A DNA stretch of 64,000 nucleotides. Source: Nocardioides jiangxiensis. Its GTDB lineage: Bacteria > Actinomycetota > Actinomycetes > Propionibacteriales > Nocardioidaceae. The stretch lies in NCBI RefSeq assembly GCF_030580915.1, contig NZ_JAUQTA010000001.1:806001-870000 (forward strand), read 5' to 3'. The notes beneath the pieces were generated by a model. The model searched no databases, was not told the DNA's origin, and saw nothing but the letters and a program-made list of their open reading frames with translations. Positions 60,164-62,697 of the stretch are shown one piece after another (positions within the stretch are counted from its first letter, which is position 1; each line of letters opens with the position of its first letter). The position numbers and the translations under genes were made by a program.

Positions 60164-61399
60164 TCAGTGCGCGACAGGGCAGGTCCGCACCTGCATCTCG
60201 TCGACGCCGAACACGATCGAGGTCTGGCGGTACGCCGGAGTGCCCTGCACCTGCAGGTCGGGGAAGCGGCGCGCGAGCGCGGGCAGCGCGATCTGCAGCT
60301 CCAGCCGCGCCAGCTCGGCGCCCACGCAGCGGTGGATGCCGTGGCCGAAGGCGAGGTGCGAGGACGGTTCGCGGGAGGGGTCGAAGCCCGGCCGGCCGTC
60401 GTGGTTGGAGCCGGGGATCGAGACCATCACGACGTCGCCCTTGCGGATCCGCTGGCCGGCCACGACGACGTCCTGCTTCGCGAACCGCGGGAACGCGACC
60501 TGCACGACGGCGAGGTGGCGCAGCAGCTCCTCCACGACCGGCACCGGGTCGTCGCCCTCGGCCAGAGCCCGCCACCACTCGCGGTGCTCCAGGAGCAGTC
60601 CCGTGCCCAGCGCGAGCATGGCCGCGCTGGTCTCCATGCCGCCGGTGAAGACGCCGTCGGCGAGGCCGCCGAGGTCGTAGTCGGAGATCTCGGGGTGCTC
60701 GAGGACGAGGCGCCCGATCAGGCCGGGGCCCGGCTCGATGCGCTGCCGCTCGGTCGCCCCGATGAGGAACGTGCGCGACCCCGAGATCGCACCGAAGGCA
60801 CCCATGCCGCCCTGCGAGACGTCGAAGCGCGCTCCGCCGAGCTGGCGGAACGTCGCCCGGTCGTCGAGCGGCAGCCCGAGCAGCTCGCAGATCACCAGGA
60901 ACGGCACGTCGAAGGCGAACGTCGCCGCCAGGTCGACGGAGTCCCCCGCCTTGCCGCGGCGCTCGAGCAGGTCGAGCTGCTCCTCGACGATCTCCGCGAT
61001 GCGGGGACGCAGCGCCTCGAGCCGGCGCTTGGTGAACTCCGGCGCGACGAGCTTGCGCAGCAGCGTGTGCTCGGGCGGGTCGGTGAACCCGAGGCCGCCG
61101 ATGTCGCCGTCCGCAGCGCCGCGCGCGCCGACGTACGGCCGGATGTCGGTGGAGTACGCCGTCGGCTCGGCGAGGACGGCGCGACCGGCCTCGGCGTCGG
61201 TCACCAGCCACACCCCCATGCCGAGGACCGAGGCGAGCCTGCGCACCGACTGGCCATCAGCCAGTCGGGGGTCGACCTCGACCCCGTCACGCCGCAGCGG
61301 CCAGGCCAGCGACTCCGGCAGCCTGTCCAGACGGGAGAGATCCATCTTCCGGCTGCCCACACGGGCGGCGAGACGGACCAGCGGCGCGGCGATTCCCAT
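60164..61399 (-). CDS. Cytochrome P450
   Basis: A 411-residue bacterial-type P450 monooxygenase. The heme thiolate is C358 in [14 protein letters not shown]. The I-helix oxygen motif is GGMETSA and the ExxR charge pair is in EELLRH. No redox partner is fused or adjacent, so a ferredoxin must come from elsewhere. The substrate is unknown. ATG 61399 is the most family-like start; no strong ribosome binding site precedes it, and a longer frame would enter the divergent terC promoter. Confidence 0.93.
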
Positions 61400-61481
61400 G
61401 GCGACATGCTGCCAAGGTCGGCTGAGGAATGCGTGAATTTCGCACGCTTTTGCGGCCGCGCGCGCCGCAGCGGCCGGCAGG

Positions 61482-61487
61482 TAGACT
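61482..61487 (+). promoter_or_regulatory. -10 element, terC
   Basis: TAGACT. Transcription would start near 61494, at the 5' edge of the candidate riboswitch. Confidence 0.55.
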
Positions 61488-61493
61488 GTGCCC

Positions 61494-61622
61494 ACCTTGG
61501 AGGGGAGTATTCCTTCGCGGTGGCGTCGTCAGTACGGACCACGGGTCCCGGTGCCATCGGTCTGCGGCGGGGCCGTCAGGCGGAAGAGACCTCCGGAGTC
61601 AGTCCTGTACACACTCCGGAGG
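61494..61622 (+). ncRNA. Candidate yybP-ykoY Mn2+ riboswitch
   Basis: The leader has GGGGAGTA (61502-61509), GTCAGG (61575-61580) and GAGACC (61586-61591), landmarks of the yybP-ykoY manganese riboswitch. P1 can form between UUGGAGG (61497-61503) and CCUCCGG (61590-61596), and UUCC (61510-61513) can pair with GGAA (61582-61585). The same CCUCC also pairs, in a perfect 10-bp alternative (61590-61599 with 61613-61622), with the Shine-Dalgarno GGAGG. Aptamer formation would free the ribosome binding site, predicting an ON switch for the downstream Mn2+ exporter. Confidence 0.75.
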
Positions 61623-61635
61623 AAAAGGATTTCCC

Positions 61636-62697
61636 ATGGATGCACTCCTCGGCGACTCGGTCGCCTCCCCCACCGTATGGATCGCGACGCTGCTGGTCAC
61701 GCTCGGCATCGTCCTCGTCGACGTCGTCATCATCGGCCGCCGCCCGCACGAGCCCACGCTGCGTGAGGCCAGCCGCTACCTGACGTTCTACGTCGCGCTG
61801 GCAGTCGCCTTCGGCATCGGTCTCTGGGTCTTCGCCGAGCCGCACGCGCTCTCGCCCAGCCCCGGCCCGGAGTTCTTCGCCGGCTGGCTGACCGAGTACT
61901 CGCTCTCGGTCGACAACCTCTTCATCTTCATCATCATCATGGCCAGCTTCAACGTGCCGCGGCAGTTCCAGCAGAAGGCACTGCTGATCGGCATCGTGCT
62001 GGCACTGATCTTCCGCGGCGTCTTCATCGTGGTCGGAGCCGCGGCGATCAACGAGTTCAGCTGGGTCTTCTACCTCTTCGGGGCGTTCCTGATCTACACC
62101 GCGGTCAAGCTCGCCAGGGAGGGCGCGGAGGACGAGGACGAGTTCGAGGAGAACAAGCTGGTCGCGTTCGCCGAGAAGCGCCTTCCGGCCACGAAGGAGT
62201 GGCACGGCACGGCCCTCCTGGTCCGGCTCGGCGACAAGCGGGTGATCACCCCGATGTTCCTCGTCGTCCTCACGCTGGGCACGACCGACCTGCTCTTCGC
62301 GCTCGACTCGATCCCGGCGATCTACGGCCTGACCAAGGACCCGTACCTGGTCTTCACCGCCAACATCTTCGCCCTCATGGGCCTGCGCCAGCTCTACTTC
62401 CTCATCGGCGGACTGCTCGAGAGGCTCGTCTACCTCTCCTACGGCCTGGCGTTCCTGCTCGGCTTCATCGGCGTGAAGCTCGTCCTGCACGCCCTGCACG
62501 AGAACGAGCTGCCCTTCATCAACGACGGCCACCACGTGGCCTGGGCGCCGGACATCCCGATCTGGCTCTCGCTGGTCGTCATCATCGGCACCCTCGCGGT
62601 CACGACCGTCGTCTCCCTGGTCGCGAGCGCCCGGATGACCGCCGCCGAGCGCGACGAGGTCACCGGTCCCCGGCGCGACTGGGCGAACGACGACTGA
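61636..62697 (+). CDS. TerC-family integral membrane protein, candidate Mn2+ exporter
   Basis: A 353-residue TerC protein with about nine helices. Conserved acidic sites are in SVDNLFIF and FALDSIPAIY, the two metal-handling motifs of Alx/YkoY-type proteins. Recent work places riboswitch-controlled TerC proteins in manganese efflux. Older names link the family to tellurium resistance, but no ter cluster is present here. The ATG follows GGAGGAAAAGG, which lies inside the predicted riboswitch-controlled hairpin. Confidence 0.93.
   Translation: MDALLGDSVASPTVWIATLLVTLGIVLVDVVIIGRRPHEPTLREASRYLTFYVALAVAFGIGLWVFAEPHALSPSPGPEFFAGWLTEYSLSVDNLFIFIIIMASFNVPRQFQQKALLIGIVLALIFRGVFIVVGAAAINEFSWVFYLFGAFLIYTAVKLAREGAEDEDEFEENKLVAFAEKRLPATKEWHGTALLVRLGDKRVITPMFLVVLTLGTTDLLFALDSIPAIYGLTKDPYLVFTANIFALMGLRQLYFLIGGLLERLVYLSYGLAFLLGFIGVKLVLHALHENELPFINDGHHVAWAPDIPIWLSLVVIIGTLAVTTVVSLVASARMTAAERDEVTGPRRDWANDD

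What the first reader, a model, noticed from the sequence alone, without database searches (positions are those of the whole stretch)
61494..61636. Mn2+ riboswitch with a built-in Shine-Dalgarno competition upstream of terC
The terC leader contains yybP-ykoY landmarks (GGGGAGTA, GTCAGG, GAGACC). One strand, CCUCC at 61590-61594, can pair either with GGAGG at 61499-61503 (aptamer P1) or with the ribosome binding site GGAGG at 61618-61622 inside a perfect 10-bp hairpin. The two pairings exclude each other, so metal binding would expose the ribosome binding site. This gives a directly readable translational ON switch for a predicted Mn2+ exporter in a high-GC actinobacterium.
Basis: partly seen in the sequence, partly recalled or inferred. 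Interest (0 to 1): 0.72.

Follow-up and report, generated by a model that had tools for sequence, protein, structure and literature searches.

The report
Manganese-sensing RNA switch before terC
The start of this Nocardioides-type messenger RNA looks like a manganese sensor whose closing strand can either complete the sensor or cover the ribosome's landing site, so manganese should switch on a manganese-export protein; it belongs to a known riboswitch family, in a form that the standard family model misses.

Summary
The finding holds in essentials. Rfam's Mn2+ model RF00080 matches weakly (19.9 bits, cut-off 45), but it also scores E. coli mntP 44.9 and does not see E. coli alx. A model (R1) built from 54 terC leaders finds alx (39.7 bits) and matches in 77 of 396 genomes of the phylum. 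The first genes after 79 of these leaders include TerC (47), P-type cation ATPases (14) and GDT1 antiporters (7). The aptamer covaries (25 of 29 pairs) and lacks helix P2, as alx does. The strand exchange covaries beyond the ribosome-site core: own helices beat same-core swaps 28 to 7 in 39 one-per-genus cases. It is not universal: 56 of 166 distinct leaders lack six uninterrupted pairs. Against: a second possible ribosome site (AAGGA, 61625-61629) is open in both states, and no metal response was measured. Best reading: an alx-type yybP-ykoY riboswitch, translational ON; a new member of a known kind.

The parts
61482..61487 (+). -10-like hexamer TAGACT; predicted transcript start near 61494 (inferred)
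   Evidence: An N-A-N-N-N-T hexamer starts 13-17 nt before P1 in 144 of 171 distinct leaders, against 16 of 171 in two control stretches of the same width. No sigma-70 consensus promoter was found.
61499..61503 (+). P1 (P1.1) 5' strand, GGAGG
   Evidence: Pairs with 61590-61594; helix 97.5% paired in 88 sequences, 4 of 5 pairs with changes on both sides
61504..61510 (+). 5' side of loop L1 (GGAGTAT), tertiary-contact loop of the aptamer
   Evidence: AGGGGAGTA is invariant in alignment A1, built from leaders chosen by G[AG]GGAGTA; role by homology with the solved aptamers (PMC6754395, passages)
61511..61513 (+). P1.2 5' strand (UCC, pairs with 61582-61584)
   Evidence: helix 2: 98.0% paired, 2 of 3 pairs change on both sides
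61514..61517 (+). Short joint where, by position, helix P2 of the four-helix aptamer would sit; P2 is absent, giving a three-way junction
   Evidence: RF00080 alignment replaces a 17-nt paired element by 3 nt; consensus has three helices at the junction
61518..61528 (+). P3 5' strand (pairs with 61549-61559)
   Evidence: helix 3: 10 of 11 pairs change on both sides
61529..61535 (+). Metal-site loop L3 (UCAGUAC); A61531 corresponds by order of motifs to the Mn2+-contacting adenosine
   Evidence: CGUCA invariant in 54 of 54; mapped to UCA41 (L. lactis) / ACA48 (X. oryzae) of PMC6754395 (passages)
61536..61548 (+). P3.2 hairpin (61536-61540 with 61544-61548)
61549..61559 (+). P3 3' strand
61560..61581 (+).
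   Evidence: helix 5: all 5 pairs change on both sides; 92.9% paired
61582..61589 (+). P1.2 3' strand (GGA) and 3' half of L1 (AGAGA)
61590..61594 (+). Switch strand CCTCC: P1 3' strand in the bound state, anti-ribosome-site strand in the free state
61590..61599 (+). 5' arm of the 10-bp sequestering hairpin
   Evidence: fold; conserved with changed letters in relatives
61613..61622 (+). 3' arm of the sequestering hairpin; holds the Shine-Dalgarno GGAGG 61618-61622
61625..61629 (+). Second possible Shine-Dalgarno AAGGA, just outside the hairpin, 6 nt before ATG
   Evidence: mostly unpaired in both states, 0.70 and 0.73
61636..62697 (+). terC, predicted Mn2+ exporter
   Evidence: PF03741, 174.8 bits; 91% and 89% identical to the N. 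jejuensis and N. phosphati proteins

Best explanation
The leader is a Mn2+-sensing riboswitch of the yybP-ykoY family, in its P2-less three-way-junction form (like E. coli alx), with a translational ON output. RNA polymerase makes the aptamer first. With Mn2+ bound between loops L1 and L3, helix P1 (GGAGG 61499-61503 with CCUCC 61590-61594) is held shut, the 3' arm ACUCCGGAGG is largely freed, and the ribosome can use the GGAGG at 61618-61622, so TerC is made and Mn2+ is exported. Without Mn2+, strand 61590-61599 leaves P1 and forms the 10-bp hairpin that hides the Shine-Dalgarno. Shown here: the sequence elements, membership by homology, aptamer covariation, covariation of the exchange helix, and the predicted energy bias. 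Inferred: the metal as ligand, the direction of the switch, and that control is at translation.
For: Homology: R1, built from terC leaders alone, finds the E. coli alx leader at 39.7 bits, E 3.2e-8; alx is Mn2+-responsive (PMC9603457, passages). RF00080 also matches the window in the right place. Structure: 95.9% of cells paired, 25 of 29 pairs change on both sides, 0 of 500 shuffles as high, slid versions far lower (the alignment was fitted to the model). Gene context: TerC 47, E1-E2 ATPase 14, GDT1 7 of 79, although R1 was trained on terC leaders only. Switch: with Shine-Dalgarno sites called without looking at the switch strand, pairing at the four positions outside the core is 2.43 of 4 against 1.98 in permutations, 0 of 4000 (166 distinct leaders); one per genus 3 of 4000 reach the observed value (45), one per family 8 of 4000 (23). 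Helices of 8 or more pairs in 19 of 45 one-per-genus leaders against 2.9% for shuffled regions. Energies: hairpin state about 10 kcal/mol lower; Shine-Dalgarno unpaired 0.00 free, 0.53 with P1 forced. No terminator-like site in the leader. Mn2+ stabilising P1.1 against strand invasion is reported for the X. oryzae and L. lactis members (PMC6754395, PMC11087558; passages).
Against: No RF00080 match at gathering score. The AAGGA at 61625-61629 has better spacing to ATG (6 nt) and is about equally open in both states, so the hairpin may not gate initiation fully; the GGAGG spacing of 13 nt is unusual. Even with P1 forced, GGAGG is only about half free (0.53). 56 of 166 distinct leaders have fewer than 6 uninterrupted pairs between the switch strand and the pre-start region, including a Nocardioides group with an AGGAGC ribosome site. 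Whole-leader folding energy is not better than shuffles (z -0.75). A 10 kcal/mol bias is large for a ligand to overcome at equilibrium, so the switch would have to be kinetic. 15 of 106 terC leaders lacked the L1 motif, though two of these, L070 and L093, look like the aptamer with a changed motif.
Confidence: 0.8

Rival explanations
1. Real Mn2+ riboswitch, but the main output is transcriptional: when the leader is not translated, Rho stops transcription, or RNA stability changes.
For: E. coli mntP is reported to combine a translational riboswitch with Rho (PMC11647493, title and start of abstract in the listing; a term search of its text found nothing more). L204 and L208, two genomes of another family of the phylum, show GACC...GGTCTTTTTT terminator-like hairpins on the same switch strand.
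Against: No terminator-like site in 61396-61700; the exchange helix reaches the ribosome-site region in 110 of 166 distinct leaders with six or more pairs.
Confidence: 0.1
2. Real yybP-ykoY-type aptamer whose main signal is something other than Mn2+ (Ca2+, another divalent metal, or alkaline pH).
For: The alx leader, the closest studied relative found, also responds to alkaline pH (PMC9603457, passages); the pneumococcal mgtA member is reported to bind Ca2+ more tightly than Mn2+ (PMC9495176, passage). Na_Ca_ex matches 2 of 79 downstream proteins.
Against: The L3 adenosine for Mn2+ contact is invariant; the commonest downstream families are TerC, P-type ATPase and GDT1, and TerC, P-type ATPases and UPF0016 are named as Mn2+ exporters in PMC13274385 (passages; that GDT1 is the UPF0016 family is recalled).
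Confidence: 0.08
3. The aptamer is real but the GGAGG hairpin is incidental here; ribosomes use AAGGA 61625-61629 and control is weak or lost at this locus.
For: AAGGA spacing 6 nt; unpaired 0.70 and 0.73 in the two states. A Nocardioides group has no long exchange helix.
Against: The hairpin is kept with unrelated loops in near relatives such as L005-L008, L010, L011, L014, L034-L036 and L038-L045.
Confidence: 0.08
4. Not a riboswitch: chance landmarks in a GC-rich leader.
For: RF00080 below its cut-off; whole-leader fold unremarkable.
Confidence: 0.01

Closest known systems
E. coli alx leader (Mn2+- and pH-responsive yybP-ykoY riboswitch before a TerC-family Mn2+ exporter)
   Same: Gene family, landmarks, no P2 in the R1 alignment; found by R1 at 39.7 bits
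   Different: By eye, its P1 3' strand GACCTTGCC is complementary to GGCGAGGTC well upstream of the start, not to the Shine-Dalgarno
E. coli mntP leader
   Same: Family; described as a translational Mn2+ riboswitch (PMC11647493, start of abstract); 44.9 bits with RF00080
   Different: Not found by R1 at E up to 10; other gene family
L. lactis and X. oryzae yybP-ykoY aptamers (solved structures)
   Same: P1.1 as the switch helix competing with a downstream hairpin; L1/L3 motifs (PMC6754395, PMC11087558, passages)
   Different: Four-way junction; output is a transcription terminator
S. pneumoniae mgtA Mn2+/Ca2+ riboswitch
   Same: Reported three-way junction (PMC9495176, one passage; primary paper not held)
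   Different: mgtA, an ATPase transporter gene; output not checked here
C. glutamicum cg2157 (terC) yybP-ykoY leader
   Same: Actinobacterial terC leader already listed as RF00080 and observed by RNA-seq (PMC3890552, passages)
   Different: 49.13 bits in the Rfam data used there; its sequence was not examined here

Membership tests
yybP-ykoY / Mn2+ riboswitch (RF00080) | Rfam covariance-model match at gathering score | tested here: not met
   19.9 of 45 bits, E 0.0016. Calibration: the model scores E. coli mntP 44.9 and misses alx at E up to 1, so this criterion fails known members.
yybP-ykoY / Mn2+ riboswitch (RF00080) | L1 GGGGAGUA and 3' GAGACC closing on helix P1 | tested here: met
yybP-ykoY / Mn2+ riboswitch (RF00080) | L3 with the invariant metal-contacting adenosine, between P3 helices | tested here: met
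   CGUCA invariant in 54 of 54; assignment by order of motifs to A41/A48
yybP-ykoY / Mn2+ riboswitch (RF00080) | Secondary structure supported by covariation | tested here: met
yybP-ykoY / Mn2+ riboswitch (RF00080) | Helix P2 and four-way junction | tested here: not met
   Absent. Also absent from E. coli alx in the R1 alignment, so not obligatory in the family.
yybP-ykoY / Mn2+ riboswitch (RF00080) | Lies before Mn2+ homeostasis genes | tested here: met
   TerC here; TerC, P-type ATPase, GDT1 after 68 of 79 leaders if no protein matches two of them
yybP-ykoY / Mn2+ riboswitch (RF00080) | Mn2+ binding and Mn2+-dependent expression | not testable with these tools
   Needs probing and reporters
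Translational ON riboswitch by Shine-Dalgarno sequestration | Aptamer strand and Shine-Dalgarno pair exclusively, with conserved covariation | tested here: met
   not universal (56 of 166 distinct leaders below six uninterrupted pairs)
Translational ON riboswitch by Shine-Dalgarno sequestration | The sequestered site is the one the ribosome uses | tested here: inconclusive
   Second site AAGGA 61625-61629 open in both states

The most novel reading that the evidence does not exclude
Actinomycetota carry a large set of P2-less Mn2+ riboswitches that RF00080 does not report, before terC, GDT1 and P-type ATPase genes, and about two thirds of those examined share one output design: the P1 3' strand is itself the anti-Shine-Dalgarno, so P1 5' strand, P1 3' strand and ribosome site must evolve together. 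In another family of the phylum the same strand sits in terminator-like hairpins, so terminator and ribosome-site outputs are two uses of one exchange strand.
Probability: 0.6. Interest if true: 0.5.

Novelty: new member of a known kind. Interest (0 to 1): 0.4.

Why it matters
It gives a readable, directly testable translational Mn2+ switch in high-GC actinobacteria, where the public family model finds very few: over its cut-off in 1 of 396 genomes, and at E 1e-5 in 6 of 396, against 77 of 396 with R1 at E 0.001 (the thresholds differ and the RF00080 genome search used a limited first look). It also shows that RF00080 misses P2-less members, E. coli alx among them, so counts of Mn2+ riboswitches based on it are likely too low.

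Tried and rejected
Rejected: 'no riboswitch because RF00080 fails its cut-off' - the E. coli controls fail it too. Rejected: a claim that the three-way junction is new - E. coli alx aligns to R1 without P2 and S. pneumoniae mgtA is described with one (one passage). Rejected: GTCAGG as a landmark (mostly in variable P4). Rejected: an intrinsic terminator. A sub-threshold RF00080 match on the second contig (13.7 bits, 24 nt) was taken as chance. Whole-leader folding z-score was uninformative. Duplex energy against mononucleotide shuffles of the downstream region was weak per leader (p at most 0.05 in 44 of 87 and 45 of 90), so a test with blindly called Shine-Dalgarno sites was used; its first version dropped 45 of 177 leaders and called several starts wrongly and was replaced (3 of 177 dropped: L135, L186, L189). 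and 66 counts of 174 include 8 leaders that entered twice through two searches; one search recounts 166 distinct leaders. A first count of the -10-like hexamer added offsets that can overlap and was replaced by a count per leader.

Literature: ten searches listed no paper whose title or abstract start describes a ribosome-site exchange for an actinobacterial Mn2+ riboswitch. The library holds open-licence papers only; the two founding 2015 papers and the S. pneumoniae paper are not held, so absence from print is not claimed.

Full report
What is in the sequence. GGAGG 61499-61503 can pair with CCTCC 61590-61594; the same CCTCC starts CCTCCGGAGT 61590-61599, which is perfectly complementary to ACTCCGGAGG 61613-61622, whose last five bases are a Shine-Dalgarno 13 nt before ATG 61636. 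The ORF from 61636 is TerC (PF03741, 174.8 bits); a divergent cytochrome P450 gene lies upstream (60164-61396, minus strand, as scanned). GTCAGG is present but is not a landmark. None of 20000 shuffles of 61590-61612 contains the 10-mer complement.

Is it a Mn2+ riboswitch? Rfam at gathering score finds nothing in the window. With laxer settings RF00080 aligns end to end at 61495-61606 with 19.9 bits, E 0.0016 for 461 bases and all 4227 families; the alignment skips a 17-nt paired element (by position P2), which is 3 nt here. I then took 110 terC loci (30 from unnamed relatives; 80 named). After removing 4 duplicates, 91 of 106 leaders carry G[AG]GGAGTA within 450 nt and 15 do not; one of the 91 (L049) has a chance motif and no GAGACC, and two of the 15 (L070, L093) look like the same aptamer with a changed motif. 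Eight more pairs of the remainder were the same leader found twice. From 66 leaders in one orientation I kept 54 under 90% similarity, aligned them and obtained a consensus of 29 pairs, 19 with changes on both sides. The structure is P1, L1, P1.2, a three-way junction, P3 with L3 and P3.2, and P4. C-G-U-C-A of L3 is invariant; its A (A61531) is in the position of the adenosine whose N7 contacts Mn2+ (A41 in L. lactis, A48 in X. oryzae; PMC6754395, passages). This mapping is by order of motifs, not by a solved structure.

Calibration with known members. The covariance model R1 finds the E. coli alx leader at 39.7 bits, E 3.2e-8 in 39420 bases, over its full length and without P2; it does not find mntP. 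alx is annotated as a Mn2+ exporter and its leader responds to Mn2+ and to alkaline pH (PMC9603457, passages). RF00080 gives no match (E up to 1) to that alx leader and 44.9 bits, just under its own cut-off, to the mntP leader. So the missing gathering-score match in the window says little.

How widespread. R1 at E 0.001 matches 77 of 396 genomes drawn from the phylum and 78 of 98 of the genus; the window's genome has one match. RF00080 passes its cut-off in 0 of the 77 R1-positive genomes and in 1 of the 396 (6 of 396 at E 1e-5, none of them among the 77). These genome searches use a limited first look. Direct cmscan at gathering score gives 0 in 20 diverse loci, and at E up to 1 no RF00080 match in 20 others. 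Of 95 R1 matches, the window and 89 others were examined; the five weakest were not fetched, and two (L119, L134) stop at a contig end. First genes were scanned for 79 of the other 87 leaders (8 left out: no start called or a short frame): 47 match TerC, 14 P-type cation ATPase, 7 GDT1, 2 Na/Ca exchanger, 2 peptidase M50 and 1 DksA-type. R1 was trained on terC leaders only, so the ATPase and GDT1 genes are independent support; P-type ATPase, UPF0016 and TerC proteins are named as Mn2+ exporters in PMC13274385 (passages; GDT1 = UPF0016 is recalled). On 88 matches (87 loci plus L204) 95.9% of cells pair and 25 of 29 pairs change on both sides, against 74.1% and 19.5 in shuffles and 38-52% of cells for slid structures (the alignment leans to the model).

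The exchange. The strand after GA in GAGACC is the P1 3' strand. For each leader I called the start codon and Shine-Dalgarno without using that strand (177 leaders, 3 dropped, 174 used, 166 distinct). At the four positions just outside the Shine-Dalgarno core, own pairing is 2.43 of 4 against 1.98 (sd 0.052) when partners are permuted, 0 of 4000 (166 distinct); one per genus 3 of 4000 reach the observed value (45), one per family 8 of 4000 (23). The longest uninterrupted helix with the region before the start reaches six or more in 110 of 166 distinct leaders (66%, shuffled 12.8%) and eight or more in 74 of 166 (45%, shuffled 1.5%); one per genus 33 and 19 of 45. Exchanging the switch strand for ones with the same first five letters from other leaders gives on average a shorter helix in 28 and a longer one in 7 of 39 one-per-genus cases. 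Examples: CCUUCAACUG with CAGUUGAAGG (L126), CCUCCAGC with GCUGGAGG (L139), CCUCCACG with CGUGGAGG (L199), CCUCCGGCAG with CUGCCGGAGG (L128). At one position the P1 strands swap G-C for A-U in 36 of 88; among distinct leaders with the A-U pair the Shine-Dalgarno has A in 12, G (wobble) in 23 and C in 1, against A in 11 of 126 (a mismatch) with the G-C pair. Against: 56 of 166 fall short of six pairs, 34 of them in the terC set, including a Nocardioides group (for example L013, L016-L027) whose ribosome site is AGGAGC (25 distinct leaders have that site), where the exchange is about four pairs.

Energetics. For 61490-61665 the hairpin state has the minimum (-78.6 kcal/mol) and the P1 state is about 10 kcal/mol higher; the GGAGG is unpaired with probability 0.00 unconstrained and 0.53 with P1 forced. 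AAGGA 61625-61629 is open in both (0.70, 0.73). Over 92 leaders with a six-pair helix (counted before removing the doubles) the median bias is 9.3 kcal/mol towards the hairpin, positive in 89. Secondary-structure energies leave out metal and tertiary contacts; the size suggests a kinetic switch, in which P1 forms first and Mn2+ delays strand invasion. That fits the reported role of P1.1 in other members (PMC6754395, PMC11087558; passages), but is inference here.

Transcript start. An N-A-N-N-N-T hexamer starts 13-17 nt before P1 in 144 of 171 distinct leaders, against 16 of 171 in each of two control stretches; here TAGACT 61482-61487. So the aptamer probably sits at the extreme 5' end of the RNA, starting near 61494 (inferred).

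Comparison. It works like, and by the sequence tests other than Rfam's cut-off and P2 belongs to, the yybP-ykoY Mn2+ family. The absence of P2 is shared with alx and is not new. In alx the switch strand is complementary to GGCGAGGTC well upstream of the start rather than to the ribosome site (by eye). In L204 and L208, from another family of the phylum, the same strand lies in hairpins followed by T runs. An actinobacterial terC leader (C. glutamicum cg2157) was already listed as RF00080 in PMC3890552 (passages). I therefore file the locus as a new member of a known kind; the widespread ribosome-site exchange is the most novel part, and ten searches of an open-licence library that lacks the key 2015 papers listed no description of it.

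Noticed in passing
L158, L166, L173, L185, L196, L200 (downstream of the aptamer): In most of these leaders the switch strand forms a long hairpin (for example CTTCGACCG/CGGTCGAGG in L158) well before the called start, with in L158 a second possible hairpin near a later ribosome site; this may be a relay-type output rather than direct exchange.
   Followed up: no
L028, L029, L031, L083, L085, L095, L099 (terC leaders): A group of Nocardioides terC genes (N. luteus, N. albus, N. turkmenicus and others) lacks the aptamer motif and instead has a different conserved upstream region, in several with a TTAG(A/T)CT...TAA string, possibly a protein operator replacing the riboswitch.
   Followed up: no
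L204, L208: Within the same phylum, canonical-looking Mn2+ riboswitches carry a hairpin on the P1 3' strand (CCTTTGGC...GCCAAAGG) followed by a T run, i.e. a terminator-like output of the same strand; their downstream genes were not scanned.
   Followed up: partly
L013, L016-L027, L055 and others (terC leaders): A Nocardioides group keeps the aptamer but has a local GGCGTCC/GGACACC-type hairpin after P1 and an AGGAGC ribosome site with about four pairs to the switch strand; its output is unexplained.
   Followed up: partly
L214 3468-3558; L215 5372-5501 (E. coli K-12 controls): RF00080's gathering score just excludes mntP (44.9 of 45 bits) and the model does not detect alx at E up to 1, a weakness of the public family model.
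   Followed up: yes
window 61502-61514: GGGGAGTATTCC(CC) is itself a short inverted repeat in many leaders (GGGGA...TCCCC), so a local hairpin could compete with P1.2 in the unbound state.
   Followed up: no
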